Assembly (NCBI GenBank): GCA_903813345.2 | Contig: CAIIXF020000007.1 | Span: 22,555,564-22,619,563 of the forward strand | Direction of reading: 5' to 3' | Source of the DNA: Owenia fusiformis | Lineage: Eukaryota > Annelida > Polychaeta > Sabellida > Oweniidae | DNA: 64,000 nucleotides | Part shown: one piece after another, positions 41,660-61,897 of the stretch | How the letters are laid out: the number at the start of each line of letters is the position of its first letter | Position numbering within the stretch: position 1 is the first letter of the stretch | Made by a program: the position numbers and the translations under genes | Notes under the pieces: generated by a model | What the model was told of the DNA's origin: nothing | What the model saw: only the letters and a program-made list of their open reading frames with translations | Databases searched by the model: none

Positions 41660-43453
41660 CTATTCAAAACCCGATTGGTGATTTTTGTTTCTTTCATTCC
41701 AAATTGCATAATTCATTTTGTGAGAAAACACCCAATATTGATATTTATACGAAGTTTGAAATTTTTTGCATGGTTCAAAATCCACCACTTGGGCTTTGTC
41801 ATGGTCTGTGATATGGCACATACACCCGATGATGTTATTGGAGAACTGCTGCATAAAGCGTCCAATGAGACCTTTGGATCGATTGTCAATTGGCATAGTG
41901 TTGGGTACAGTTGTGTTAAACACCCATGTTTGGTTCTTTGGTATACCCTGTGTTGTAGTTATACACTGGGTGACTTTCACGTAAGGTGTTGTGTCATTTG
42001 GTCGCTGGTAAACTGTTAGGCATTTCTCATTCAGTATCAAATTACCGGTTTTGGTCAAAGAAAATAACTGATTCGCATACACTTGACAATCTTGCATTTG
42101 CATTTTGTCTTTGTCAGGAACGAAGGTCATGCAAGCACCAGTTCCAAAGTTTTTTAGTTGGCCAAAATAAATCGATTGGTTTGCTGGAATTATCATTTCT
42201 GGTATAACCTTATTGAGGTACCATTTGAAGTCTTTGCATTTTAGGGTTTGCTTCAGTTGGATCCTTTGTTGCAATGTCTTATTTTCTTCCTTTGAGAGGG
42301 GAACATACTTCCCAATAGCAGCATAGAAATGAGGTCTATATTCACCCATCCAAACTTCAGCCGCCCTTTGGAGATTTTTCTGAATTATATTGCCACCATT
42401 TTCTTTTCCGTGTTTATCTGGGAAGGAATATGGTAAATATGAACGGAAAACATGTGCTATTCTTGAACATGGAATTATATACACCCCTTCTCCACACATC
42501 CAAGCCCGGAAGGATATTTCGAGATTTTCACCTCCCCAAATACGCATGCCTTCATCGAAACCCCCAAAAGAGAAGAAATAGCTCCGAGAAACTGCAAAAG
42601 CGAACCCAATCAATGTTGGACTTCTGATAGGGTCAATGCTTGAAGTTCTTCTCTTTGTTTCATGTTCTGGTAAAAATTTCCACACGTATTCTAGTTTCCA
42701 ATCGAAGCCACCGTGAACGGTAGAACTCCACGTCCTATATTTGATGGTCTTTGGATCAATATCGTCTGCTGTTGGTACAGCTATACTTGTGGGCATGCGC
42801 GTCAGTGAATCAAGCAATGGTACCAACCAATAGTCCAAACACTCAATGTGAGCATCTAGAAACACTAGTACACCACCGGTTGCTGCTCTAGCGCCAGTCA
42901 TCCGTGCAACCATAAGTCCACCACGTGACTTTTGTCGGATTATTTTGATCTTCGGGAAATCTTTGGCGAAATTATCCAATGGACGCTTTAGGTAGTCCCT
43001 TGAGCTGAAGTCATCCACGAGAATAATTTCCTTGAGAAGATGACTTGGTGTTCTTTTTAGAATACTGTAGAGTGATCGGATCAACATCGACCAGACCTCG
43101 TTGTAAAAGGGCATGATTATGCTAACGCTTTGGAAAGACACCCCCATTCTTTGAGAAAAAGTCCTACAAAGTTTATCTCTCGTGTCAGGTAGGGGTCTGT
43201 CCAATGCAGTGCTATGACTAGCTGAAGTGTTGAGATAATCCTCGGAAAAACCACGTGACTCATTGATGGGAAATCCCAAATTACTCATCTTTTCTAAGTT
43301 CCAATTAAGGCGAACTTCACGCATGTATATTGGCACTAGATCCATAGCCAGATAGACACAGCCAGCTGTGACAATGATCAACATTACTAAGCATGGCTTA
43401 ATCCAAGACGGCGAAGGTATTAGACCTATGCCCCTCTTGAAAATCAATCCCAT
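41660..43453 (-). CDS. Polypeptide GalNAc-transferase (GT27), intronless
   Basis: A single 597-residue reading frame. A type II Golgi anchor lies near residues 20-40 after a short cytoplasmic tail with KRG. The GT27 catalytic domain follows: SIIMPFYNE, then EIILVDDFSS, then the metal-binding DXH in FLDAHIEC, and the second-half motif WGGENLEISFRAWMCG. The C-terminal ricin-type lectin domain starts about residue 425 (IYFGQL); its three CLD positions read CMT, CLT and CMC, so sugar binding may be weak or altered. The enzyme would start mucin-type O-glycosylation by moving GalNAc from UDP-GalNAc to Ser/Thr in the Golgi. The intronless state and the similar neighbour at 44115-46385 suggest a retrocopy followed by tandem duplication. 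Confidence 0.93.
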   Translation of the reverse strand: MGLIFKRGIGLIPSPSWIKPCLVMLIIVTAGCVYLAMDLVPIYMREVRLNWNLEKMSNLGFPINESRGFSEDYLNTSASHSTALDRPLPDTRDKLCRTFSQRMGVSFQSVSIIMPFYNEVWSMLIRSLYSILKRTPSHLLKEIILVDDFSSRDYLKRPLDNFAKDFPKIKIIRQKSRGGLMVARMTGARAATGGVLVFLDAHIECLDYWLVPLLDSLTRMPTSIAVPTADDIDPKTIKYRTWSSTVHGGFDWKLEYVWKFLPEHETKRRTSSIDPIRSPTLIGFAFAVSRSYFFSFGGFDEGMRIWGGENLEISFRAWMCGEGVYIIPCSRIAHVFRSYLPYSFPDKHGKENGGNIIQKNLQRAAEVWMGEYRPHFYAAIGKYVPLSKEENKTLQQRIQLKQTLKCKDFKWYLNKVIPEMIIPANQSIYFGQLKNFGTGACMTFVPDKDKMQMQDCQVYANQLFSLTKTGNLILNEKCLTVYQRPNDTTPYVKVTQCITTTQGIPKNQTWVFNTTVPNTMPIDNRSKGLIGRFMQQFSNNIIGCMCHITDHDKAQVVDFEPCKKFQTSYKYQYWVFSHKMNYAIWNERNKNHQSGFE

Positions 43454-44114
43454 TCTCGTATTTGAATATTTGTTTATAGTTTTGTGATTTAATGTCTTTT
43501 AATAGTTACGTTTATTTTAATTTTATTTTATATTGTAAACAAATATGCTGAAGCACGATTTTTGTGTCACATAAAAATCATGTTCATACTTTATAAATTG
43601 GTGCATTAGATTTTAAAATATGCCCAAAGTTCATCATATTTTAAAATAATTCTATAGGAAGAATCCTCTCGTGCAATCCAGTTTGTGCATAATACCAGCA
43701 TTCATTTTAAACTCAAATAAATGCCATGTTTATCGCTATATGAATCAACAAGTCCTGTCTACACGTTTTGTAAATCTTCTTTAAATATTTAAATACTCAA
43801 TCCCATTTCTATTCACAGATATGGAATAATTATGTGCTTTCTATAGATCTCACTAAAACTCTGAGTTATTTTTTGATTACAGGCGGGTCACATGCAAATT
43901 AGAGAAATGTTGGCAGTTAAATTGAAAGGTTTAAATTATGCCTATAGGAATATATTAACTGTGTGAATTTGTAATTAAAGTACATTATAACTTTTACTTC
44001 AGGCGTATAAAATACTTTGATTGAAATGACACAAAATTGGATCAAAATGAAAATGATATTTTCAACCTTTTCTAGAATGGAAGAAAAATCGTCCCAATAT
44101 CACAATGCAAACTA
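43454..44114. other. Spacer between the two GalNAc-transferases
   Basis: AT-rich, no recognisable gene. It should hold the promoter of the 41660-43453 gene and the 3' UTR of the 44115-46385 gene, both minus strand. Confidence 0.5.
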
Positions 44115-46385
44115 TCAAGTGTCAGGCACTTTTTCAAATACCCATTTCTGTTTAAGTTCATTTTCATCACACTTCGCAAATTGGACAGTTTTTTGCTCGC
44201 CGTTGCCTAGTAACATGAGGCATCTTCCTCGTTTTTGAAGTTTAAGTTGTTGATAATGTGTGTAGTTCCACATGAGACCTTTGTTGTTGATGATGCGAGG
44301 GCATTTTAAAGTTTTCAATTCACTCTTTTTACCTGCAAGGCAATATGCCCCCACGCGGAGTGATTTATCTCTATCTAGATGTAATACTTTGAGGTAATTC
44401 GGCTGCTTACTGCATGGCACGATAGAAAGTGTTCCATCATCAAGAACTGAGACACAGTCTCTATTCTGTTTTACTTTTAGAGAATTGGCTAACATGCCGA
44501 ATTCGATAGCTTCTTTTGGTCTCTTCATATGTTCATGTGATATCTGTTGAATATTCATGTTCTGTTTAAAATTTAGTTTAAATCCAAACATGTATTTTTG
44601 GTCTTCCCTTGCTGGGTCACAAAGCTGTGTTTTAAATGTTTCATTTCTAGAGGTTAAGCATTGGTCATTGTGTCTTAATTTGATATGTCTAGAGCTCTCA
44701 ACAAATTCCCATACGTTATGTTCCTCTCTGCACAACCTCTGATACTTTACCCCGTTTAAAGTAGGAACGATGCAACCTTCTCCAAAACGGAATTTCCCGT
44801 CTGATGTTATGGCGAATATTCTGTCCGCAGCGCCTTGCAACCAACAGGTTGTTCTTGTCAAATGTCCTTCTTCAGATGGTCTGGCAATACACTCTTTACT
44901 CCCTTCGTGTGTCATTTGACCAAACTGCATGGCATCACTTGGAGGAATTTCCACCTCCGGGGCGATATTTTTCAAGAACCAGTCAAATGATTTACACTTT
45001 AAATCTCGTCGAAGTTTTTTACGTTCTTCTAACGACTCATAATCAATAGGTATGAGTTTCGATTGGGTTGCGTAGTAATATTTCTTGTAGTCGTCCATCC
45101 ATACTTCTGCAACACGGATCATATTGCGCTGTATCACACGGGCTGAATCCCCTGGAAAGCTATATGGAAGTTTAGGCTTGAACAAGTGAGCCACTCTGCA
45201 GCATGGTAGTATTTCTATAGATCCTCCACACATCCAAATTCTGAATGAATGTTCAACATTTTCGCCTCCCCAAATGTCCATCTTTTCATCGTATGCACCA
45301 ATTTCGAAGAAATAGTCCCGATTTATTCCGAATGCGCAGCCGACCATTGCTGGTGTGAGTATTGGCGCAAGTTTGTTATCTCGTCTGCTTATTTCTTCAT
45401 CTGATAAACGACGCCAGTTGTATATGAGATCCCAACCAAACGTCCCAGTATCAACCCCACTCGCACCAATATAGTCCATATCTTTATGCGCTATCCCCTC
45501 CATCAGGGGTATGATGACTGTATCCCTCTTTTCCTTTATTCTCTGAAGAAGTGGCTCGATCCACATATGATTCACCTCACAATGCGAGTCCATAAAAAAC
45601 AGCACCTGGCCCGTTGCAGCCTTGGCGCCTTCCAGACGTGCACGGATGAGGCCTTGGCGAGACTTAGGACGAATAACTCGTACCTTAGGGAGGTGCTCTA
45701 CGTAATCATTAAGCGGCTCTAGTAGCCAGTCGTATGTACTAGCATCATCAACTAGAAGTACCTCTTGGAGTAACGACCGAGGTGTTCTTACTAAAACGCT
45801 ATGAACTGTCCTCAAGAGGGTAGATCTGGCTTCATTGTGGAACGGTATGATAACGCTCACTGTTGGCAGATCAGTAACATCGTACATCAGTTTCTTACAA
45901 TCACCGGGTCTACTATCCGGAACGGGTCGTAAATTACCTGCCTCATCACTCGCTGTTGTATTAAAAGAATGAAATCCCTCCGTTGGCATCCACAAAATTC
46001 GTTTCCAATCTGGACCTCCATCGCGTTCCTGTATGTTCACGTCATTTTCGGTAATGCTTTCCCCCGCACCCCAATCTACTTGCCCGGCTAATGGTCCATC
46101 GTGTGTCCGATCCGAACCCAGGAGACGCAAATGTCCGATATTTGTCATGTGTTCGCTATCTTTGAGATCATCTTCGATGTCTTCTTTTGCCCAATTAAAG
46201 TCCTTTATAATCCGATGGGAATCGTACTTCCCTGTGAACTTTATGTAAAGTTGAATGTTGAACAAAGTTGTAGCAAAAATTAAGGCTAAGAATAATGAGA
46301 ATTCAGGTTTCATTTTGAGTTGTTTAAAATGTTTAATAAACATGAATGTGAGTAATAAAATGATCATGACAACAATTGTGATCAT
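44115..46385 (-). CDS. Polypeptide GalNAc-transferase with two lectin-like domains, intronless
   Basis: A single frame of 756 residues, about 150 longer than usual family members. Two hydrophobic runs lie at residues 2-16 and 29-47; Met25 (46313) just before the second could be the real start and would give a normal type II protein. The catalytic part has VSVIIPFHNEARSTLLRTVH, LLVDDAST, DXH as MDSHCEV, and WGGENVEHSFRIWMCGG. A ricin-type lectin follows (from about 490, MQFGQM). A second, similar block starts around 630 (IEFGML, then CVSVLDDGTLSIVPC) and ends QKWVFEKV. CLD motifs are replaced by CIA, CIV, CLT, CVS, CLA and CLM. The duplicated lectin tail is unusual for GT27. A Golgi role in O-glycosylation is inferred from the family. 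Confidence 0.92.
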   Translation of the reverse strand: MITIVVMIILLLTFMFIKHFKQLKMKPEFSLFLALIFATTLFNIQLYIKFTGKYDSHRIIKDFNWAKEDIEDDLKDSEHMTNIGHLRLLGSDRTHDGPLAGQVDWGAGESITENDVNIQERDGGPDWKRILWMPTEGFHSFNTTASDEAGNLRPVPDSRPGDCKKLMYDVTDLPTVSVIIPFHNEARSTLLRTVHSVLVRTPRSLLQEVLLVDDASTYDWLLEPLNDYVEHLPKVRVIRPKSRQGLIRARLEGAKAATGQVLFFMDSHCEVNHMWIEPLLQRIKEKRDTVIIPLMEGIAHKDMDYIGASGVDTGTFGWDLIYNWRRLSDEEISRRDNKLAPILTPAMVGCAFGINRDYFFEIGAYDEKMDIWGGENVEHSFRIWMCGGSIEILPCCRVAHLFKPKLPYSFPGDSARVIQRNMIRVAEVWMDDYKKYYYATQSKLIPIDYESLEERKKLRRDLKCKSFDWFLKNIAPEVEIPPSDAMQFGQMTHEGSKECIARPSEEGHLTRTTCWLQGAADRIFAITSDGKFRFGEGCIVPTLNGVKYQRLCREEHNVWEFVESSRHIKLRHNDQCLTSRNETFKTQLCDPAREDQKYMFGFKLNFKQNMNIQQISHEHMKRPKEAIEFGMLANSLKVKQNRDCVSVLDDGTLSIVPCSKQPNYLKVLHLDRDKSLRVGAYCLAGKKSELKTLKCPRIINNKGLMWNYTHYQQLKLQKRGRCLMLLGNGEQKTVQFAKCDENELKQKWVFEKVPDT

Positions 46386-47284
46386 TGTGTACTCGAATAT
46401 TAAAATTTAGTTTTAGTATTCCAATCATGTCGCATTTTATTGCCAGGAGCGTGATTGTACAACTGATACTTGATTATGATTAATATACTTTAATAATTTC
46501 CCTTTACAACGCACAAGTTTAATTTCGAACTTATGGAAAAGACGGTATAAGAACGGTAATAAATCAGGGATGGACTCACTTTATTTTGGCATAGTCATAC
46601 ATGTGACTATTACTAGGGTTGCTGCGTTTGTTCTTCTCGATGAAGATGTCCCTCTTCTTCGGTTATAACTGAGGTCTAAAGAAAGCTTACGTGCCCTGTG
46701 CCCACTGTAGCTGGTATGCTTCGAGCAGGTGTAAGTCCGACCACCTATAAGGTGCCAAATAAATCACATGTATTGCATTTTCTAATGTCTCTAAGGACTT
46801 CTGTAAAATAACGTGCATGGGACATAGACCACCCTCAGTATTACTATTAGTTTCGGTGCAAGCGCATGTCAAATGTTATACAGTTTATGACCTATCCCGG
46901 AGAAATTGACTTTTTATTATTCATTATTTATATTACGACACTGTCAGACTCATGTATGCTGAAAACCCAGGCCTCTTCCTTCTTATTTGCCCACTAGGGT
47001 AGAGTCCTCAATACGTAAAATTAATCACGTCTCCGTCATACCTTTTCCGGTTTTTATATAATACTATATCAAATGAATTATTTGGCCTTTACGATATTGT
47101 ATTTCCTCTTCATTTAAAGAGGGCAGCACTACTCCATACATATATCCATTCGATTTATAGCTGAAATTATTACTATCCACCTTTTACTATTTACCTTAAA
47201 ACTGTTGATGATATTCTTCGATAATATCATCATGTTTGATTTACAAATTATTGTTTAATTATTAAATATCCTTCATCGGTTTTA

Positions 47285-49492: not shown

Positions 49493-49688
49493 TAAGCTTG
49501 TATTCGCGAATGCAACTAACGTCTGTCGGCTACCGGATTAACCTTCTATTTTACTGGAAACTCATATAAATATGAAATAAGAATAGAACTTTCAACTATT
49601 CCATTCACATTTAAATGAGTTGGTCATAAAATACTAGGTTAATCCGGTAGCCGACAGGCGTTAGTTGCATTCGCGAATACAAGCTTTA
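49493..49688. repeat. 196 bp palindromic MITE, copy 1
   Basis: Terminal inverted repeats of about 50 bp (AAGCTTGTATTCGCGAATGC at the left, GCATTCGCGAATACAAGCTT at the right) enclose a core with GTCGGCTACCGGATTAACC and its inverse. A second copy lies at 51650-51832. It sits just upstream of the first BRICHOS gene. Confidence 0.88.
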
Positions 49689-49903: not shown

Positions 49904-49960
49904 CATAAAAGACGCGCATCCAAAACAAATTGCCAGATGAATATCAAGAAACGCCACTGA
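49904..49960 (+). promoter_or_regulatory. Proximal promoter of first BRICHOS gene
   Basis: CATAAAAGACGCGCATC and a downstream TTGCCAGATGA are conserved at the same distance from the start codon in the second paralogue (58217 on, with a perfect TATAAAAG). This copy has CATAAAAG in place of TATAAAAG. Confidence 0.6.
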
Positions 49961-50006: not shown

Positions 50007-52508
50007 ATGTTTCCAGAAAAAGTTTTAAGCGAAAAGAAGGAGACTCCGGGTGTCTTTGTTACGCAGGTAAAATATCGTAGATTGTATTTATCACGTTCAG
50101 TATTAATACTAACCAAAATTTTCAATTCTAACAATTGAAAATAGATTCTAGCAATACTCTCTCGAATGAATCTAGTTATTGAGACTCGATAAACTTGAGT
50201 TCTTCTAAGATAATGAGGATTTTGTATCTATACCCATGATTTACATCGTCAGCTTTATCAGCTTTACGATGATTCTCCTTATGTTTAGATGTCCCCTGAA
50301 GCGACAGAGACGACATCTAAGGGTGGACTGACAAAGAAACATGTACTGATTGCCATAACAACTGTGCTGGTTACACTTCTGATCGTTGGTGGAATTGTAG
50401 CCGTTACTCATGAGATGAAAGAACGCGACGTAGAATTCATTAAGGTAAAGGAATCAGTTAGAAAATGACACTTTCTATTTTCGTTTGACATTGATCAGTG
50501 CACACTGTACTATATTAAATACAAAACGTATATTTTATGAATGATTAACATTTTCTTGTAATTTCAGAGCTTCAAATTTCGAGATACAAATGGCAAAGAC
50601 AACGAGGAAACAGTGAATGTTAACGTAAAGGAAAGCACCACAGAAATGAAAGTAACTACTGAAGGAGAAGATGACTTCTCGCTACTCAATGATTTTAAGA
50701 GAGTAAGTAATATTCCCAAAATCCTGCTCTTTTTATCAGAGGGGGAATTTGAGGATATTTTTTTTATATTTTGGACCCTATTCTAAATAGGCCTCATTTT
50801 TCATTGAAAGCCCATGGATGGACTACTTATATATTCAATCTGCTTTTTTAAAATCATTGCTTAGTGCACCAATTATTTTTCATTTCAAAATATATTAAAA
50901 ACTAACAGAAATATATTTGAATTCTTACATGCATTTTCATGAGAAAGGCTAACCAAACAAGTAATCAGTAATGTTCATCATTCCAGGGCATCTCAGTTTT
51001 CAAGATGACGATAGATGGCGAGCCTAGATGTGCAGTGACACCTATGAATAAGACGGCGACTCTTTCCCCTGAAACATTAGAGGCCTACTTGGAAACACAT
51101 CCAGTAAGTATTTCACTAGTGTCTACCAAACTTTTTTATCTATTTAATTATTTGTACACACTTTTACAGCAGTGGCACGTGGGTCCTGAGGTCCCAGTGC
51201 GTCATATTACATATTAAAAGTACTCATTAAAACTATCATTTTACTTATTTGAAAATTGGATATTTTTGTTAATATAGCTTTGCATTTTTGGGATTCAATA
51301 GCATTGTTAAATGCCTTTTTTATGGTAGACAATGTTATGTAAACGACTGAAAAGTTTTAAAATATTAAAAATCAATCACCATCCAAGGCAGTCATGTACC
51401 AGTAAATCTATTTCAATGTTTTCAGCACCCTGAAATGGTTGATGAGAGAAGCGTTAGTCATGTAAAATACGAGATGGCCGAGGAGAACATCGAGGACACT
51501 GATTTCCTTGGATTCCGTATCAACACAATGTGTGAGGGACATGCCATTTATTGGTTGTACCCAAAAACGGAGGACGAAGAAATGAAAAATGTCACATCAC
51601 AAGGTAAATGAAATGGTTTGATTTTTGATTGCTTGAATTGTTTTCTTACATTGCATTCGCTAATGTAACTTTCGGCTGTCGGCTACCGGATTAACCTACT
51701 TTTTATGACCATCTCATTTAAATATGAATAGTGCCTGCCACTATTCCATTCATATCTAAATGAGTTGATCATAAAATACTAGGTTAATCCGGTAGCCGAT
51801 ATCCGTTATTTCCATTTGCGAATACAAGCTAAGTTACATACACTCCCGCATAAAAGGTTGACACCATCTCCCTTGTTTAATCGCATTACATGTTATAATT
51901 ATTATCAAAATGAGGAGTCAATTTGTCAAACGTTTTATAGATGAAAGTGTAATATTACAGAATTCGATTAAAAAATAACCAGCCTAGTTCTAAACTTTTT
52001 GATAATTTGATTTGCTAATTTATTCAGATATTCATGGTGCACAACAAGAAATGGGGAATATTGTTTTGCCACAGTTTTATTGCGACCAGTCTCAGCGTCT
52101 GTAACGATTGTTACATATATTTATTGTTACATATACAGTATGTAACCATTTGCAGGCGGTGGTATTTGTCATATAATGCCTTGTTATATGAACATTGTAC
52201 ACAGGTGGAGCCTGTTAGACACCAACACAATAATGTTCAATCTTTATCTTGCAGATGGCCGAAAGAAGAGAGCTGCTGGTTGGCCCGCTGATCTCTGCGG
52301 AGCTACACTATTGCGGAAATTCGGAATTGTCGGAGGCAAGTACTTGTGTAGAAAATACACTGATCTTGCAAACACATGTCGTGTGGATTGCTGCCGTGAT
52401 ATATACTCAAAGACAGTCATAGAAGGTGGTAAAGTGGTCGTCTACTGGTTTGGAACGCAGCCATGTTATATATACACTTATTACCCTTGCATCAGTTGTC
52501 TATACTAA
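50007..52508 (+). CDS. BRICHOS proprotein with 8-Cys C-terminal peptide, paralogue 1
   Basis: Six exons: 50007-50066, 50289-50444, 50568-50702, 50987-51103, 51426-51603 and 52255-52508; phases 0,0,0,0,1; 299 residues. A cytoplasmic tail of 37 residues precedes a membrane segment at about 38-60 (type II). The BRICHOS domain spans roughly 108-205, with the conserved Asp114 (NDFKRGI), Cys132 and Cys192 and the YWLYPK end. The furin-type site RKKR (218-221) would free a 78-residue peptide with cysteines at 9, 26, 36, 40, 41, 65, 73 and 76, rich in Tyr and with net charge about +4. BRICHOS acts as a chaperone for aggregation-prone or beta-rich clients; in polychaete arenicin-type precursors the client is an antimicrobial peptide. 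An antimicrobial role here is inference. Introns 1 and 5 contain repeat insertions. Confidence 0.92.
50110..50230. repeat. Half copy of the palindromic element at 22415-22692
   Basis: ATTCTAGCAATACTCTCTCG, AATGAATCTA, GAGACTCGATAAACTTGAGT and GATAATGAGGATTTT match one arm of the Ly6-intron element. It lies in intron 1 of the first BRICHOS gene. Confidence 0.65.
51650..51832. repeat. Palindromic MITE, copy 2
   Basis: Diverged second copy of 49493-49688, with GTCGGCTACCGGATTAACC and GGTTAATCCGGTAGCCGA at mirrored positions. Inserted in intron 5 of the first BRICHOS gene only. Confidence 0.88.
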
Positions 52509-52774
52509 CGAGTATTAGTAGAGTATATAAGTTCATGGATTTGAACTTGTGGCACAATAATTAAAGATGGTTGGAGGTTATCAAAATAATTTGAATTATG
52601 TACGCATTTGACTTTGTGTTTTTATAAACAATAAGTACAGACAATTTTCATGTTAAAAAGTTTCGCACTATGTAAGATATAAGATGTTTGATCTGAAAAT
52701 TAATATCTTAAAGGATTTTATAATCTCGACATTGATATTGTGCATTTTATGTATATTTGATAGTATGTATATTG

Positions 52775-53015
52775 GAGTTTAATCCTCATATTGAGACTTG
52801 TACCCATATAATATGAATATATAATCCTTATATTGAGACGTGTACCCATGTAATATAAATATAATCCATATATTGAGACGTGTACCCATGTACTATAATC
52901 CATATATTGAGACTTGTACCCACATAATATGAATATAATCCTTATATTGAGACTTGTACCCATATAATATGAATATAATCCTTATATTGAGACTCGTACC
53001 TATATAATATGAATA
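52775..53015. repeat. ~40 bp AT-rich minisatellite after BRICHOS 1
   Basis: Six copies of ATATTGAGACTTGTACCCAT followed by ATAATATGAATATAATCCTT, probably in or just after the 3' UTR. Confidence 0.85.
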
Positions 53016-53559
53016 TGACTTTTAGTTTTAGAAACAGTCTGAATCTATGACAGAATATTTTCCTGATTTTCCTCTCTCATTAGCATAATTAATGGTGTAG
53101 AATATACGATTTTAAACTATTAACGTGTAATGTGTAAGAATATCATATATTTATATAAATGGTGTATTATCAAATATAAGTGTAGTTATATTAAAAGTTG
53201 ATCTCTTGAATAAAATGTACACATCTAAAATGTGGACCTGTATATAGCAGCCAGTCCTATATAATAATAAATGTCACTGTGGATCTCAGTATTTCTTTGA
53301 ATTACTCTTGGTATTACTCTTTTTGAGAAAGAATGCGTGAGGAGGAATGAGACAAAGGCATACAAATATGATCACATGTTATCAAAAGTAAATGTAAATA
53401 AATGTATATAAGCTGATTCTATTTGATCTTAAATGGAACCATGGAAGGAAAATGAAAGGAATCGCCTTAAATTCCAGTTATTTTTTTGCTTAGTCATGGA
53501 CTTCACGAGAGTTATTCAATAAAACTAAAACAAATACTCTCATTTTGTGTTTATCAATG

Positions 53560-54270
53560 AATCAAGATGTAAAGAGTGTCCATGAAGTCTCTTTACAATT
53601 ATAATATCACACAAAGGCTGTGTAAAGTGTGAAGAGGCTTTATGGACACTCTGTAATTTTCAGTGATTGAAGGCTATATCACGAGCGCATGCGCAGCCAC
53701 GTATGGTTGATGAAGAGGAGGCAACTGCCTCGCCAGATTTGCCTCACCAAAACTTTAAATATATTTTTCAGAGGTATTTTCAAAACTGAGGAAATGAAGT
53801 TTAAAGGTAGAAACCTACGTCCTTTTATCTCCTCAGTAAAATGTATTGGCCTAAGATCACGAAAAAAATGATTTGAAGTGCAATACAGGATATTGTCCTT
53901 TGACCTCGTCACGTGCAAAGCGGCAGAATTCGGAAATTTCGGAAAGATCTCAAAATTGACGCAAATTCCTGTTGGCAGCCATTTCGAATTTTCTGAGGCA
54001 CAAATCAAAAAACAATACCATATTTTTGACCTACCCTAAATTTCCTTCAAGTTGAGTTAAATATAGCCATACTTTGAAAAGATCAGAAAATTATTGCGAA
54101 ATGTCACATAAGGCGGCCATTTTGAATTTTATGAGACCCAAATTAGAAAAAACGATACAACTTTGCCATGTACTCTTAATTGACTTTCATTTGAGTATAA
54201 TAAAGCTATACTTTAGAAAGATCTCAAAATTGACGCAAATTCTTGTTTTCCCGACCCCCCCCCCCCCCAT
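53560..54270. repeat. Inverted repeat plus 135 bp tandem units
   Basis: 53570-53660 is an imperfect hairpin (AAGAGTGTCCATGAAG / TTTATGGACACTCT). Then 53943-54245 holds 2.3 diverged tandem units marked by GATCTCAAAATTGACGCAAA and GCGGCCATTTTGAATTTT, ended by a C14-15 tract at 54256-54270. Confidence 0.6.
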
Positions 54271-54559
54271 ACACAGCCCCTAGGGGTCTGGCTGAAAAAC
54301 TCGGAATACATATGACATACAGTCGATAGGTGTTGAGAATATATTATCAAAAGGAGTGGTAATGATATGGTGAACTTTTTGAACACGCGCTTCTCTTAAA
54401 TCAGTCATCAAAACATTGGGAAAATTTTACACATCGTCAATTTCATGGTCATCTTTCGGATGGTGCCATTATAATTTAAAATATATTTATACACTTTTCT
54501 CTATTTTGTTTTAGAAAACACATAAGACACTTCTTTTGTCCTTGGTATCATATGTTCGG

Positions 54560-56525
54560 AATGAAATGAAACATCTATCCGAACCTCATTGGAACAAAAC
54601 GACATAAACACAACGTGTTTAGGTCTCTCAATATTGTAATTGTACAAAGGAAAGTTTGGTTAATTTAAAAAAAGTAACGATTCTTGCGCGTTCTTTTTTA
54701 AAAAAAGTATTTTTTACCAAAAAATTTCCTTTGTATAACTATAATATTGAGAGGTCTAAGAAAATGTTGTATATGTTATTTTGTTCCAACAAGGTTCGGA
54801 AAGACATCTTATTTCATTTTCAAGAATTGGTAGAAACACGAGGGGAAAGAGTACCCGTGTATATACAACCTACCGCCGAGCAAGACTCGCACATACCGCC
54901 GAGCAAATGTTTGATAATGTCATCTCGTAGGAAAATGGACAATAAAGGTAATATAATGTCACTAACAATTCCTTTGGATGGTTAGAGTTGTTACTAAGAT
55001 GTTCTAGCAGGCGCAATTGGCCTAGAATTATAGTTGAAATATATGTTTATGTCCAAATTAAGAGATAAGGTAAACGTATAAAGGTTTTCGATGTGTTTTT
55101 CTAATTCATACTCGCTTTAATTGATAATGAGCCATACATAAGACATACTTGGGTCGGTAAATGGATGTACATATGCATAATATATTAAGTGTCAAAATAT
55201 TATGTCAAAATAGCACTTTTGAACAGCAAAATCTTCACTTAAACTTTGTCCTAAAAGATCCGAGGTTATCGGACATCGGACCCGATGTGATCGACGAGTA
55301 ATATTATAAAGATCCGAAAATATCTTGAGTAAAGGATCTCAGAATCCGAACATTACTTGAGTAAAATCTGTTGAGATCCGATTATATCGTGCTGATGAAA
55401 AAATAATAAACATTCAATCTGCATTATTTGTGAATCATTTTGTTGTGAACAATAAATGAAACTGAAAAAAATATGGCTATCACCAGTTACCACTGCACAT
55501 CGAAACATTGTATTTCAGGTCCTCGGTACAAATGCTTCCACTGTAGTTATAAAACACACGAGATGGATGACGTTGTGGTCCACTTCAGTCAGTACCATCC
55601 ATCACTGAGTATTAAAGTTAATGTGCCTGAATTAAATGGCAAAAAATGGATTTACAATGTTTTTGACTATGGTATTGTATCATCAAAGAAAGATCGCGGT
55701 AATTTTTGTTTCGAGGATATGAAGCTTGTGAAGCTTGGGATTCTTCAAGTTGTGTTCTTTGAGTAGAATGGCGCTTGCAATGCAGAATTAAATGTTTTTG
55801 GGTTGCACTCTTACCATAGACACATTATGGTGATTATGGTGGAAATTATGGTGATTCAAGTGTAAGCATGAATTCAATGTTTTAAAGAACTTTGCCGGAA
55901 ACAGACGTTGACGTATAGTGCTGCGGGAATTATATCATATTATATTATATCCCGGTGCCAGGAGTATATGATAAATAAAAAGGAATATTTGTGATATCGT
56001 CATGATATTATATGCTCATTCGAAAGCTTACTCACTACCTCATCGGGTTCTACTCATGGTATAGTCGGAATAGCTCGGTGGTAGCTTCGGGTCCTTTATA
56101 ATCGTACTCGTGACATAATCGGGTCTTTCATTTTCAACTTTCACCGGTGATTTCAATGATATGCAACGTATGGCAGTGAAATAAATATGATACGTTTACA
56201 CCTATTGTATCTTTGAATCGAATGAAGTAAAGACAGCCATGGTTGTTACTTATTCAAGATGTAAATCATCATTCAAATATTTAAAAGTTGAATTTAGCGA
56301 TTCGATAGTAAACATTGCACTAAGTACTCATTATTCTGCAAACATGAGTGCCTGGAACAATAACTTTATCAGTTACACACAATTCTGTGTTTTATCTGTT
56401 TCTCATATTGAGAAATTCAAGATACAAACAAAAGTTTATAACTCACCCCCTACATTTTCAGACATCTTCGGGTCTTTGCTCGGCGGTAGGTTGTATATAC
56501 ACGGGTACTCTTTCCCCTCGTGAGA
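54560..56525. mobile_element. Region bounded by inverted repeats, possible transposon remnant
   Basis: A 48 bp inverted repeat (GAGGGGAAAGAGTACCCGTG and on, at 54838-54886, against 56474-56522) spans 1.6 kb. On its left is a ~270 bp hairpin (54565-54825; CTCAATATTGTAATTGTACA against TATAACTATAATATTGAGAG). The only notable frame within is at 55473-55766. The family is unknown. Confidence 0.5.
55473..55766 (+). CDS. Unrecognised 97-residue frame with C2H2-like finger
   Basis: The frame starts MAITSYHCTSKHC and contains YKCFHCSYKTHEMDDVVVHF followed by SQYH, which fits a C-x2-C-x12-H-x4-H zinc finger of the kind found in transposon-encoded or zinc-finger proteins. It then has a short region with no known motif and stops after VVFFE. 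There are no clear splice signals. It lies inside an inverted-repeat-bounded interval, so it may be part of a mobile element. Function unknown; a real product is uncertain. Confidence 0.4.
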   Translation: MAITSYHCTSKHCISGPRYKCFHCSYKTHEMDDVVVHFSQYHPSLSIKVNVPELNGKKWIYNVFDYGIVSSKKDRGNFCFEDMKLVKLGILQVVFFE

Positions 56526-56529
56526 AAGG

Positions 56530-58190
56530 AACAAAAAACAATTGCACTCAAAAACAAAAAACGTTAACAAAGACAGTTAAAACACATATAAATAATTTTT
56601 GCATTAAACATTACATAAAGGACCGTGTTTTTTACAGAATGTTTTCAATAATTGGTTTAAGAGAAAAAACATTGTTGAATTCAGTTCACCATATCGATAC
56701 CTATCCTTTATCTAGTCACGTTCGTATCTTTGTGATAATATTTAATTATCTGAAGTTGAACAACATCTTTTATAGTTTTTTGTTTATTTATAGCAAGGAC
56801 GTTCCCCTAGACCTATTTCTAAGAATTGTTTGAATGTACCTGGTCGCATATCCACCTTCAACCAGGAAGATATGAAAAATAAATCTTCACTCTCTTCATC
56901 AGTTCAAATACACAATATTCATGATCTCATTCTCTTTTCAAGGATGGGCGAATAAAAGCACATAGTATTTTTCATAAAACCCCGAGATTTCCCCCAAGAT
57001 TGTGCATTTTAAAGTCAATAAACACCACAATGTGACCACTCTTTTACCTGTTCAAGAGTTTATGAGTCCCTAAAAAGGATTTAAAAATGCTGGAAATGCA
57101 TTGCTTGGACAAACGATTTTTCCAAACATGTACCCTTTGCATTCGTCGACTTCACTTCTTAAAAGAGAGCTTCGTTTATAACTAGACTCTGAGCGAAGAA
57201 TACCAAACATGCTAACGTGAATTATAAAAAAGGTTACTGCTGTGAAAGTGGTACAATTTCAGTTAGTCTAAGTGGTACCATTAATGTCCTGGATCCCTCT
57301 CCAAATAAAATAACAAAACAAGGCGTGTGCGGTTGGTTAGATGCCATAAGCTTGTCTGTTAGACTGATCATTGCCGGGAGGGGTGTGAGTGTAGACACCG
57401 CGATCCCCGGGGTTACGATGGTCAGTCTAAGACGCCGCGTTTTAATAAAACCCATTGACGTAACTCGACAGCCCCCGCCACCGATTTATTGCATGTACTG
57501 GTACTGTCAGTGTTTCAGGCAGGCATGCGAGCTGTGCAGACAACAAGAAGGTACCCTTTTTGGGGCAGGTCTGTTTTAACATGAACTTTGTCCCCCCCCC
57601 CTTATGGGGCAGGAACGTGGGTGACCAAATTGAGGCAAAAATGGAATGGATAAAGCTGGTGATGATAGGAAAAAATAAAAATAGAATAAAAAAATAGTTT
57701 TTAGAAAACGAGGAAACAAATGAAGAAAAAATTAAGAAAAAATTGAAGGTGGGTGGGTGAAAATCGCGAAACAGTGTGGAAAACTTGAAATGAACGGTTT
57801 TGTATGAAGTTAAGACGCTTGTATGTTGTGCGTTGACTGGCAAATCGAAATCATAAACTAGAACGTGTGGTAAGCAAGGTGAGCGGATCAGAATGGATGT
57901 GCAAATAAAGGCGTAACATTAATGGACCAATCCCATTCACCAAGATTTAATTCAAAAACATAACATTATAGAAATGTTTACATTATTTTTTCTTAGAAGG
58001 ACCCTGTCCCCAAGCCTTATATATCAAATGGGGTAAGGGCGTCATAAACTTGTTTGACTTTTGAGCATAAACTAACATACATAAAAATTGATCAGTTCTG
58101 AGTAATGATACTTATGCCCATATAAATAAAATATTTTGAAAGATATTTCGGAGAAATGATGAATGATGACATCATGCTCATTAAAAGAAA
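56530..58190. other. Intergenic region before BRICHOS 2
   Basis: No recognised gene. A 120-codon plus-strand frame at 57217-57579 (Cys/Arg rich, ends GTLFGAGLF) has no identifiable domain and overlaps similar minus-strand frames, so it is doubtful. Low-complexity A/G-rich sequence follows at 57660-57760. Confidence 0.45.
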
Positions 58191-58216
58191 ATGTTTATTG
58201 AACAAAGCGGGTTGGT

Positions 58217-58270
58217 TATAAAAGACGTGCGTCTGAAATATGTTGCCAGATGACAAGCGAAGACGAGAAC
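58217..58270 (+). promoter_or_regulatory. TATA box and proximal promoter of second BRICHOS gene
   Basis: TATAAAAG at 58217-58224 lies 105 bp upstream of the ATG. The block TAAAAGACG.GC.TC and the downstream TTGCCAGATGA match 49905-49935 upstream of paralogue 1, so this proximal region was duplicated with the gene and retained. Confidence 0.65.
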
Positions 58271-58328
58271 CAAAACCCCACCAGAGACTGAGACGGGGAA
58301 TTCTATTGAACGATAATATTCTATCAAA

Positions 58329-61300
58329 ATGTTTCCAGAAAAGATTCTGAGCGAAAAGAAAGAGGCTCCGGGTGTCATAGTGACGCAGGTAAGACTATAA
58401 CGCTATATACTTACAAAATATACATTCTGATTTCTGAAACTCATCACATCTTTCTGTCTTCAACCATAGTAGTAGTGTGAAGCTAATAGAAGGCCATGAT
58501 TTCTCATGATGCAAAAATATCGGTAATAGGAATACGAATTAATACTAGTATGCCCTTAATTTAATTTTTTACTTATATTAATGATTATTACTTTTATTAG
58601 TTGATTTGCAGGGGGGGGGGTTAACCCCAGAGATCAAAGATAGCGTACGCTTTTAATGTGAACCTGTATTGAGATGATACGCGTCCCTTCAAAATACGCT
58701 TCGAATTATAATATAATGTTCATTTCTGGCGTGTTAACCAACATCATTGCTTCTTATGTCATATCAAGATAAAAAAGGTGTATGGAATATGCCTACATCA
58801 ATTAAAACATCACGTCGAAGTGTAGCATTTGAAAACTAGCCGGTGAAAATTCGAACAAACGAAGGTGGTAATTAAGCAAAAAACGTAACAATGCCTGTTA
58901 TCTAAGCTGTGGGGCTTTCCCTCCTCTTGTTGATTTTCAATTTCAATTGCCATAAATTACAATTATATTTAGATGTCCCCCGAGGCGACAGTGTCGACAT
59001 CTAAGAGTGGACTGACAAAGAAACATGTACTGATTGCCATAACAACTGTGCTGGTTACACTTCTGATCGTTGGTGGAATTGTAGCTGTTACTCATGAGAT
59101 GAAAGAACGCGACGTAGAATTCATTAAGGTAAAGGAAACTATCCCAATCCGAATCCGAATCACATATTTGATTTTATATATCGTGATGAGAATATGCCTT
59201 TATTTCTGTTTTTGTTATTAATATTTTAGGAATATCCTTTGGTTTTGAAAAAGTATCATGTATCTTTTAGCGGATATTGATATCTCCACGAGTGAGCGCA
59301 GAGACTGAGTGAAGATATATAATATCCATGAGTGGATATTATTGATATTTTTGAAAAACCATAGGATTGTTCGTTTAAATTATTACCCGGCCAGCGAAAA
59401 AAATTGTTTCAAATTTAGAATGTTTTTAAATGAAAAAATAAAAGAAATTTTGAAAAATAATTCAAATAAATTCAGAAAAATTTCGAATGATATTTTCAAA
59501 CCCCCAAAAATTAAAAGAAATTCTGAAAAAATGTCTTATTGAAACCATTTAAAATAATTTAAAAAAGAATGGCTTCGGATTTTTGCTAAAATATGATATA
59601 TTTATAGATCTACATATCAGTTCTAGCATTAGGAATAAAGCAATTTTTGGTGATTTTGAAATTGATTTTTTCGAGTGTGACTTTGGAGTATGTCAAGGCT
59701 GTGCCCTTTCTCCAATTCTGTTCTTATTTGTCATGAATGGCCTAACTGACCGCCTGAACAATGAGAATCTAGGGATACCACTTTCGAGTATATTGGCTGC
59801 TTAGTCAAAAGGTTAATACGTTTGGTGCCCGGAGTGAGTCAATATTGCTATTCGCTGAACTTCAGTGGTGCAATAGTGAAGTCCATGTTCCAAGTTATAT
59901 GATGGTTGAAGAAAGAATGTAAATAATATCGTTTTAAAATTTAAAATATTTGATATGTCATAGTACAAGTATATGCTTGGGGATGATGTTTTTATAATGT
60001 GGGGAAATGAAATAGGAATTTGACAATTGTTTTAAAACGTTTTTAACAGAGGTGTACATACCATATTCTGGAAAACCATGATTACCATTATTTTAGTAAA
60101 TTATAGGTTTTTATATGTACATAACTTTTTAATGAATGTCGACGCTCCTTTCATACTATATATGAATGCGAGCCACTGGTTTAAAAGTGTAAATCGAAAT
60201 AAATAAATAAATAAAATAAGTATCAATTATATCTTCAGATGATATTCGATCTATATTCTTGCAACCATGAGATAAAATCATCTATACGATATCTTTATTT
60301 TAATTTACATAGTTTTAAGAGAAAGTATTTATGTTGCCAGTAGGGTTTTGGTAATTTTTGCTTAGATATGATATCTTGATCTACAAGATAACTTATCAAC
60401 ATATCAAATATATCTTAAAACGACACATCAGCTCATCCTGTAATTTCAGAGCTTCAAATTCAGAGATACAAATGGGAAAGACAACGAGGAAACGGTGAAT
60501 GTTAACATAAAGGAAAGCACCACAGAAATGAAAGTAACTACTGAAGGAGAAGATGACTTCTCGCTACTCAATGATTTTAAGAAAGTAAGTTTTAAGCTCA
60601 CTATTGAGAATCATTAATTGTGGTAGTTAAACGACTTATTTATTTTCAGAGAACATTGTTATATCACAGTGGAGTATGAATTGTGCATTATTACATCTAG
60701 AGAGGTTTAAAACGGGGTTAGCTTTGGAGAATCTCTACACCCCAAATACCAATATTGGCCATCTCATATACTTGTTTTGCATTAGTTTTGTCACTACCTA
60801 AGACATAGTATTTCCGTGTTCAATAAGTTATTACTTGTATTAGGGCATTACCGTCTTCAAGATGACGATAGATGGCGAGCCTAGATGTGCAGTGACACCT
60901 ATGAACAAGACGGCGACTCTTTCCCCTGAAACATTAGAGGCCTACTTGGAAACTCATCCAGTAAGTATATTAAGAGAACTACTTCTTTGTGAAATCACTT
61001 CTGATGTTTGCGATGATATAGTCATAGTTATTTTTTCTGACAGGAATTCGGTGTCCGTCAAGTTACATTTCTATCCCTCACAGGTTATGGACAATAAAAA
61101 TTCAAACATAAAGAGGCTTTAACACGTAGTTAAATGAAGGAGCTAAGGTTTACAAACTTATGGAGGGGAGTGTAAGTCGTATTACATAATCCTTACATTT
61201 TCAGCACCCTGAAATGGTTGATGAGAGAAGTGTTAGCCATGTGAAGTACGAGATGGCCGAGGAGAAGATCGAGGACACTGATTTCCTTGGATTCCGTATC

Positions 61301-61897
61301 AACGCAATGTGTGAGGGACATGCCATTTATTGGTTGTACCCCAAAACGGAGGACGAAGAAATGAAAAATGTCACATCACAAGGTAAATGAATGTTTTAAT
61401 GTTAAGTTCTTCAAGTATGAGAATGGCGCATATTCTGATATTACAAGGCAACTCGTTGGTAGCATGAGATTTTCTTAGACAACAACAATGTGAAAAAAGA
61501 AAATTAAGAAAAACGTTTAAAGGTTTAGATTGAAATATTTGACAGTCATGATTCATGAAGATGAAGCCAAAGATTTAAGATTTAGCCTTACCTTATTTTG
61601 CATTACTCATTCCCTCCACTTTAAATCGCATGTAATCTTGCAGTTGGACGGGAGAAACGAGCTGCAGGGTGGCCTGCTCGCCTCTGTGGACAAGCCATGG
61701 TTCATTATTTCGGTATTTCTGGAGGCCAGTACCTGTGCAGAAAATATGCAGCGCTCCAAAACACGTGCCGTGTTGATTGTTGTGCAAGGGTCTACACGAG
61801 AAGAATCTTGCAGGCTGGAAAGTGGGTTAACAACTGGTTTGGAGTTCGACCTTGTGTCACTTTCAGTCGTTACAGATGTATCAATTGCCTCATATAA
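58329..61897 (+). CDS. BRICHOS proprotein with 8-Cys C-terminal peptide, paralogue 2
   Basis: Six exons of exactly the same lengths as paralogue 1: 58329-58388, 58973-59128, 60450-60584, 60844-60960, 61205-61382 and 61644-61897; 299 residues. Membrane anchor, BRICHOS Asp/Cys/Cys and a furin-type site (REKR) are all kept. The 78-residue released peptide has the same eight cysteine positions but only about 43 of 78 residues agree with paralogue 1. It is much more basic (9 Arg, 2 Lys, 1 Asp; about +10). Residues 1-215 agree at about 95%. This contrast suits a precursor whose peptide diversifies while the chaperone stays fixed, as known for host-defence peptides; activity is inferred. Intron 2 carries a LINE fragment. 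Confidence 0.92.
59560..60220 (+). mobile_element. Truncated non-LTR retrotransposon (LINE) fragment
   Basis: The frame at 59583-59804 shows the reverse-transcriptase signature GVCQGCALSPILFLFVMNGL. After a stop, the frame continues near SILLFAEL, a decayed FADD motif. The 3' end has an AAAT-repeat tail (about 60195-60215). Inserted in intron 2 of the second BRICHOS gene; inactive. Confidence 0.75.

What the first reader, a model, noticed from the sequence alone, without database searches (positions are those of the whole stretch)
50007..61897. Tandem pair of BRICHOS precursors for a novel 8-cysteine peptide family
Seen: two six-exon genes with identical exon lengths encode a type II membrane segment, a BRICHOS domain (conserved Asp and two Cys), a furin-type site (RKKR / REKR) and a 78-residue C-terminal peptide with eight cysteines at identical positions. 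Known: polychaete arenicin-type antimicrobial peptides come from BRICHOS precursors, but those peptides are about 20 residues with one or two disulfides. Inference: a new class of larger, four-disulfide host-defence or signalling peptides.
Basis: partly seen in the sequence, partly recalled or inferred. Interest (0 to 1): 0.88.

Follow-up and report, generated by a model that had tools for sequence, protein, structure and literature searches.

The report
BRICHOS-chaperoned eight-cysteine secreted peptide genes
Two neighbouring genes, with a third nearby, make a membrane-tethered precursor whose built-in chaperone probably helps fold a small disulfide-rich peptide that is then cut free; marine worms are already known to make defence peptides this way, but here the chaperone part has stayed uniform between the genes while the peptide part has drifted far apart.

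Summary
In detail: both genes are there, with identical exon lengths, a type II-like membrane segment, BRICHOS (Pfam E 1.5e-11, 5.4e-12), RKKR/REKR and a 78-residue peptide with eight cysteines in register. A third intact gene lies 31 kb on. The novelty claim is too strong: long cysteine-rich BRICHOS peptides and a four-disulfide one (AmBRI-44a) are reported from polychaetes, and chondromodulin/tenomodulin share the architecture. By my count this genome holds at least 21 BRICHOS exon-5 places, 17 with a readable Cys-containing peptide exon behind a basic site, of very different kinds. Best reading: a BRICHOS-chaperoned, furin-released, probably host-defence peptide; function untested. The surprise is gene evolution: between A and B, exons 1-5 differ little even at silent sites (dS 0.18-0.20), whereas introns show no similarity beyond the splice sites and the peptide is saturated (dS 2.9). 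A second BRICHOS cluster shows a similar mosaic; a further pair does not. This points to exon-limited gene conversion.

The parts
50007..50066 (+). gene A exon 1 (N-terminal 20 aa, presumed cytoplasmic)
   Evidence: GT donor, frame and length as in genes B and C
50289..50444 (+). gene A exon 2 (membrane segment)
   Evidence: hydropathy maximum 2.79; 96% identical in DNA to gene B
50568..50702 (+). gene A exon 3 (linker, start of BRICHOS with Asp114)
   Evidence: Asp by comparison with B
50987..51103 (+). gene A exon 4 (BRICHOS, Cys132)
51426..51603 (+). gene A exon 5 (BRICHOS, Cys192)
52255..52508 (+). gene A exon 6 (RKKR site and 78-aa eight-Cys peptide, net charge +4)
58329..58388 (+). gene B exon 1
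58973..59128 (+). gene B exon 2 (membrane segment)
60450..60584 (+). gene B exon 3 (linker, Asp114)
60844..60960 (+). gene B exon 4 (BRICHOS, Cys132)
61205..61382 (+). gene B exon 5 (BRICHOS, Cys192)
61644..61897 (+). gene B exon 6 (REKR site and 78-aa eight-Cys peptide, net charge +10)
58217..58224 (+). TATA-like box TATAAAAG 112 bases before the ATG of gene B; CATAAAAG lies 103 bases before the ATG of gene A (49904-49911); gene C has no match to the pattern
   Evidence: consensus match only

Best explanation
Each gene makes a type II membrane precursor that enters the secretory pathway (inferred from sequence). The acidic pro-part with its BRICHOS domain acts as a built-in chaperone for the cysteine-rich C-terminal peptide (inferred from known BRICHOS proteins). 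A furin-type protease cuts after RKKR/REKR and releases a cationic 78-residue peptide with four presumed disulfides (site shown, cleavage and pairing inferred). The peptide most likely serves host defence (inferred). The locus is a family of three. Exons 1-5 have been kept alike by exon-limited exchange between paralogues, while the peptide exon of A has diverged far from that of B and C; this is the best account of the measured divergences, not a demonstrated process.
For: BRICHOS over its cut-off in A and B, three hallmark residues. Same architecture in three intact genes. Residues 73-221 have K+R 19 against D+E 31-32, the peptides net +4, +10 and +11, the acidic-pro/cationic-mature layout also reported for nicomicin (PMC6265681 passages). 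Preproalvinellacin has five introns, the antimicrobial peptide in the last exon, and a tandemly duplicated family (PMC5431198 passages). Short cationic six- and four-Cys peptides of antimicrobial look follow BRICHOS and RVRR/RFKR sites elsewhere in this genome. B-C nonsynonymous changes are concentrated in the peptide (15 of 181 sites against 10 of 522 before it, Fisher p 2.3e-4), silent ones are not (p 0.80). Homogenisation: A-B dS is 0.18, 0.175 and 0.195 in exons 1-2, 3 and 4-5, and 2.9 in the peptide (Fisher p 3e-12, counts rounded, the first group being residues 1-221). Ten of 10 A-B and A-C introns, edges trimmed, score within their shuffles; A-B intron identity drops from 0.80 to 0.26-0.33 beyond 10 bases from the exon edge.
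Against: No activity, expression or proteomic data. BRICHOS does not by itself mean defence: the four C5 genes encode strongly acidic ten-Cys peptides (net -11 to -21). Peptide A is only +4. The fold is low in confidence (mean pLDDT 60.5; other four models 35-56) and matches nothing solved (best E 1.5). On the mosaic: the C1:47 Mb pair is alignable over long stretches at about 75-83%, so the pattern is not general; the C10 pair is undecided (pieces of 70-87%). About 100 bases before the ATG are also alike in A and B (70%), and lenient BLAST joins some A exons across introns (about 71%). B and C are alike in exon 6 (92%) and intron 5 (90%) too, so the peptide exon is not always spared. In exons 1-4, A has the most private changes, as plain descent would give.
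Confidence: 0.6

Rival explanations
1. The peptide is a chondromodulin/tenomodulin-like extracellular signalling or matrix factor, not an antimicrobial one.
For: Same architecture: type II anchor, BRICHOS, furin-type site, eight Cys in four disulfides (PMC3622668 passages; PMC3492907 passages). The one solved BRICHOS match is Bri2, whose peptide is said to have no antimicrobial activity (PMC6780910 passage).
Against: Cys spacing differs: chondromodulin Cys79, 83, 99, 103 and 109 (numbers; that its remaining Cys all lie before 79 is recalled) give gaps 3, 15, 3, 5, where the last five Cys here have gaps 0, 23, 7, 2. The peptide is cationic and changes fast between B and C.
Confidence: 0.15
2. 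The peptide is a secreted mucus, venom or structural cysteine-rich component that only uses BRICHOS as a folding aid.
For: The same genome joins BRICHOS to very different C-terminal parts, including Ser/His-rich Cys-rich chains (L033, L034, L041) and acidic ten-Cys chains (C5).
Against: The three peptides here are of one length, cationic and without low-complexity tails.
Confidence: 0.2
3. For the evolutionary pattern: exons 1-5 are alike because silent sites there are constrained, not because of gene conversion.
For: Would explain sharp exon boundaries without recombination; A has the most private changes in exons 1-4, as without exchange.
Against: Between C7-B and C5a or C5d, silent sites of 25 aligned exon-5 codons are near saturation (12.7 of about 14.8). 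In the C5 cluster exon 4 is not conserved (C5a-C5d dS 1.46) while linker and exon 5 are (0.20, 0.18). Exon 5 does not single out A (private changes A 2, B 5, C 3), whereas exon 6 does (86, 6, 8); the exon-5 numbers are small.
Confidence: 0.2

Closest known systems
BRICHOS-related Cys-rich peptides of polychaetes (HfBRI-54, -75, -91 of Heteromastus; AmIMP1/2 of Arenicola)
   Same: BRICHOS precursor, dibasic site, C-terminal Cys-rich peptide; HfBRI-54 and four shorter ones have a membrane helix in place of a signal peptide; peptides up to 91 residues (PMC10745061 section 2.1; AmIMP in passages)
   Different: HfBRI-75 and -91 have 11 Cys and are not markedly cationic; here 8 Cys and +4 to +11. 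The sequences are not in the text I saw, so homology could not be tested
AmBRI-44a (Arenicola marina)
   Same: BRICHOS-related antimicrobial peptide with four disulfides (review passages PMC11767717; PMC12466427)
   Different: 44 residues (read from its name) and called defensin-like; sequence not held, spacing not compared
Chondromodulin-I / tenomodulin
   Same: type II anchor, BRICHOS, furin-type site (tenomodulin), eight-Cys four-disulfide C-terminal domain
   Different: Cys spacing (partly recalled); cartilage and tendon proteins; sequences not compared
Preproalvinellacin (Alvinella)
   Same: five introns, tandem multigene family, peptide in last exon; [quoted passage not shown]
   Different: there the 22-residue peptide (PMC6780910 passage) is nearly invariant and BRICHOS diversifies; here the chaperone part is uniform and the peptide diverges
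Bri2 (ITM2B)
   Same: BRICHOS with the conserved Asp and two Cys; the one solved match
   Different: its C-terminal peptide Bri23 forms a beta-hairpin without antimicrobial activity (PMC6780910 passage)

Membership tests
BRICHOS superfamily proprotein | BRICHOS domain over the curated cut-off | tested here: met
   44.8 and 46.2 bits against 25; gene C not scanned, 9 and 17 differences from B and A in 221 residues
BRICHOS superfamily proprotein | conserved Asp and two Cys | tested here: met
   pairwise alignment of B with 8rnu; hallmark stated in PMC9627735 passages
BRICHOS superfamily proprotein | hydrophobic anchor or signal, linker, BRICHOS, C-terminal region | tested here: met
   hydropathy and order of parts
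BRICHOS superfamily proprotein | C-terminal client with high beta-sheet propensity | tested here: inconclusive
   five strands predicted for peptide A, mean pLDDT only 60.5
polychaete BRICHOS-related antimicrobial peptide | basic cleavage site followed by a cationic C-terminal peptide | tested here: met
   RKKR/REKR; net +4, +10, +11
polychaete BRICHOS-related antimicrobial peptide | antimicrobial activity | not testable with these tools
   needs the oxidised peptide
polychaete BRICHOS-related antimicrobial peptide | polychaete host | not tested
chondromodulin-I / tenomodulin | type II anchor, BRICHOS, furin-type site, eight C-terminal Cys | tested here: met
   against the description
chondromodulin-I / tenomodulin | Cys spacing of the C-terminal domain | tested here: not met
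   gaps 3, 15, 3, 5 from Cys numbers (remaining Cys placed by recall) against 0, 23, 7, 2 here
defensin / macin (CS-alpha-beta) | match to a described peptide family model | tested here: not met
   no Pfam family at E <= 10 for peptides A and B, no PDB sequence at E <= 10 for the profile; short Cys-rich relatives can escape such searches
ten-Cys BRICHOS peptides of the C5/C8 genes (same genome) | profile similarity of the peptide | tested here: inconclusive
   shared C-x3-CC and late C-x1/2-C, but hhalign aligns only 17 columns, probability 0.8%, E 0.07, with three C5 sequences
AmBRI-44a | sequence and Cys spacing | not testable with these tools
   only mentions in reviews were found

The most novel reading that the evidence does not exclude
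The BRICHOS precursor works as a standing delivery cassette. Exons 1-5 are repeatedly rewritten from one paralogue to another with exon-precise boundaries, possibly from spliced RNA/cDNA templates because introns are untouched, while exon 6, which carries the effector peptide, is left to diverge, so an old and diverse set of effectors shares one modern chaperone. This is the reverse of what is reported for preproalvinellacin.
Probability: 0.3. Interest if true: 0.68.

Novelty: new member of a known kind. Interest (0 to 1): 0.45.

Why it matters
It adds a cationic eight-Cys, 78-residue family to the BRICHOS-chaperoned peptides, a route by which marine worms make antibiotics, and shows one genome joining this chaperone to many unlike peptides. 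If exon-limited conversion is real, it gives a testable case of a chaperone being kept uniform by recombination while its clients diverge, and asks how a fixed BRICHOS domain copes with changing clients.

Tried and rejected
Genome search with the Pfam BRICHOS model: one match, on C4 (L001, 28.6 bits); it missed the window genes, which are split by introns, and L001 gave no readable exon 5 or peptide in the scan. Fold of peptide A: low confidence, no solved match; the ten-Cys peptide folds worse (mean pLDDT 49.6) and was not searched. Homology of eight-Cys and ten-Cys peptides: not supported beyond the Cys pattern. Orphan exon-6 cassettes: the peptide search at E <= 1 gave 4 matches, three genes plus one with stops at E 0.73 (only best candidates are scored). 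NF-kB-like sites within 1 kb upstream: none in the three genes with the two patterns used. Silent-site constraint as sole cause of the mosaic: disfavoured. Selection between A and B: cannot be read, silent sites saturated. Papers on AmIMP1/2 and on worm peptide diversification: not held. BRICHOS with gene conversion: 2 papers, one relevant.
Full report
Observation. The window holds two complete six-exon genes at the stated coordinates. Reading the DNA and splicing in a script gives exon lengths of 60, 156, 135, 117, 178 and 254 bases in both, GT..AG introns, and 299-residue proteins. Pfam finds BRICHOS at residues 110-199 in both, over its cut-off. The one solved chain at E <= 10 for the BRICHOS stretch of B is human Bri2 BRICHOS (8rnu, E 0.0017), with Asp114, Cys132 and Cys192 aligned to the family's hallmark residues. 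A hydrophobic segment from residue 39, preceded by lysines, makes a type II anchor the natural reading; no topology program was run. RKKR or REKR precedes a 78-residue peptide with eight Cys in register. Random placement of eight Cys in 78 positions would agree once in about 2e10, but the genes are relatives, so the better evidence is protein-level constraint: A-B dN 0.37 against dS 2.9 in the peptide.

A third gene. Genome searches with the peptide of B (4 matches at E <= 1, three of them genes) and with its pro-part (30 matches at E <= 1, 15 of them the exons of three C7 genes) show a third intact copy, gene C, at C7:22648875-22652102, about 31 kb past gene B, with the same exon lengths. Peptide identity is 43 of 78 for A-B, 41 of 78 for A-C and 66 of 78 for B-C.

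Setting in the genome. Searches with a C10 exon 5 (17 matches) and a C5 exon 4-5 stretch (14 matches) give, by my count, 21 distinct BRICHOS exon-5 places; the tool scores only the best candidates, so this is a lower bound. I held DNA for all 21 and scanned it for frames with a basic site and Cys (at least 4, at least 2), so Cys-free peptides would be missed. I accepted a peptide exon in 17; at four (L032, L038, L039, L040) I accepted none, though L039 and L040 show a frame with a chance-looking basic site. Splicing to these exons was read by eye, not tested. The C-terminal parts differ widely: the eight-Cys cationic type here (3); ten-Cys type on C5 (4, net -11 to -21) and C8 (1, net +4 up to where I cut it, followed by an Asp/Ser-rich tail); short cationic six-Cys or four-Cys peptides on C10 (2) and C1:47 Mb (2), one of which (C10b) I cut at AKQNK in an open frame that runs on; short six-Cys ones on C1:7.5 Mb (2); Ser/His-rich Cys-rich chains on C4 and C12 (3). 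The ten-Cys and eight-Cys peptides share C-x3-CC and a late C-x1/2-C, but profile comparison gives no support for homology (17 columns, probability 0.8%, E 0.07).

Mosaic divergence. A-B dS is 0.18 in exons 1-2, 0.175 in exon 3, 0.195 in exons 4-5, and 2.9 in the peptide. For the test, residues 1-221 (exons 1-5 plus the six codons before the cut) have 26.5 silent changes in 141 sites, the peptide 38.5 in 52.5; Fisher p 3e-12 on rounded counts. Exons 2-5 are 95-96% identical in DNA, exon 1 85%, exon 6 61%. With 10 bases trimmed at the 5' end and 12 at the 3' end, 10 of 10 A-B and A-C introns score within the range of their shuffles. Ungapped A-B intron identity is 0.80 in the first 10 bases from the exon edge, where splice signals lie, and 0.26-0.33 in the next five bins. 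Not all non-exon sequence is lost: about 100 bases before the ATG align at 70%, and lenient BLAST joins exons across intron 3 (A-B) and intron 4 (A-C) at about 71%. B and C have 88-98% exons and a 90% intron 5; introns 1-4 are at 51-65%, weakly but detectably above shuffles. A similar pattern is seen in the C5 cluster, exon by exon: between C5a and C5d the linker exon (dS 0.20) and exon 5 (0.18) are alike, exon 4 (1.46) and the peptide (saturated) are not, introns 3 and 5 show no similarity and intron 4 only a little (38 against 24); C5b-C5d agrees (pro-part stretches of 39-45 codons, so few sites). As yardsticks, C5a-C5b has dS 0.09-0.13 in these exons and clearly alignable introns, and the C1:47 Mb pair aligns over long stretches at about 75-83%, exons and introns not separated; the C10 pair is undecided. 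Deep silent-site constraint is disfavoured: between C7-B and C5a, 25 aligned exon-5 codons have 12.7 silent differences in 14.8 sites. Private changes (A, B, C) are 7, 2, 5; 5, 1, 4; 4, 2, 3; 5, 1, 1; 2, 5, 3; and 86, 6, 8 in exons 1 to 6: A stands apart mildly in exons 1-4, not in exon 5, hugely in exon 6. The simplest account is exchange limited to exons that kept the pro-part alike, with the peptide exon of A left out. Template and mechanism are unknown.

How it probably works. The precursor is membrane-tethered, its acidic BRICHOS part shields and helps fold a probably beta-rich peptide, and a furin-type enzyme frees it. Chaperoning and cleavage are inferred from known BRICHOS proteins. 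Host defence is the likeliest role because of charge, the acidic-pro/cationic-mature layout, the fast change between B and C (15 of 181 against 10 of 522 nonsynonymous sites, silent ones equal), and the company of short antimicrobial-type BRICHOS peptides in the same genome. Against it stand the acidic ten-Cys relatives, the weak charge of peptide A and the lack of any activity data. The structure prediction is too weak to help.

Known and new. What I saw: PMC10745061, section 2.1 and passages; PMC6780910, PMC5431198, PMC6265681, PMC3622668, PMC3492907, PMC9627735, PMC11767717 and PMC12466427, passages only. They show that long and Cys-rich BRICHOS peptides, a four-disulfide BRICHOS antimicrobial peptide, membrane-anchored BRICHOS peptide precursors, recombination between BRICHOS paralogues, and the eight-Cys architecture of tenomodulin and chondromodulin are all described. 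In the listings of searches I noticed no report of this peptide, its Cys spacing, or exon-limited homogenisation of BRICHOS genes; four of these lists were cut (17: 15 of 20 papers; 49: 12 of 40; 65: 10 of 31; 77: 10 of 13), the sequences of the nearest candidates were not held, and most subscription papers are outside the library. I therefore file it as a new member of a known kind, with an unusual pattern of gene evolution.

Noticed in passing
49528-49652 and 51681-51797: Two copies of a short element with perfect 17-base terminal inverted repeats (GGCTACCGGATTAACCT), the second inside intron 5 of gene A; looks like a MITE. 4 matches in the window at up to 2 mismatches, none in 100 shuffles.
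   Followed up: partly
59553-59804: Reverse-transcriptase-like fragment in intron 2 of gene B (PF00078, E 5.9e-4, 20 bits, under the curated cut-off of 29.6).
   Followed up: partly
41660-46406, - strand: Two long open frames (612 and 763 aa) with glycosyltransferase 2 and ricin-B lectin domains, like polypeptide GalNAc-transferases (name recalled), apparently intronless.
   Followed up: partly
34907-35725, + strand: Open frame with a MINDY-3/4 deubiquitinase domain (PF13898, E 2.7e-56), matched over profile positions 1-192 of 344.
   Followed up: no
52780-53016: 40-base tandem repeat just downstream of gene A (6 copies); a larger 105-base array lies at 36379-37278.
   Followed up: no
L024, L025, L026, L027 (C5) and L035 (C8): BRICHOS precursors with ten-Cys peptides, strongly acidic on C5; C5a-C5b peptide dN 0.225 against dS 0.22, and C5b and C5c encode the same peptide.
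   Followed up: partly
L030, L031 (C10); L036, L037 (C1): Short cationic Cys-rich peptides behind BRICHOS and RVRR/RFKR sites; three of the four end in GK, GKK or GKR, suggesting C-terminal amidation.
   Followed up: no
L033 (C4), L034 and L041 (C12): BRICHOS precursors whose C-terminal part is a Ser/His/Lys-rich chain around a Cys-rich core with IPGCG or NPGCG motifs.
   Followed up: no
L001 (C4:82079-82207, - strand): Isolated match to the first half of BRICHOS, the only one found by the Pfam model in the genome search (28.6 bits); no peptide exon seen in the scan.
   Followed up: no
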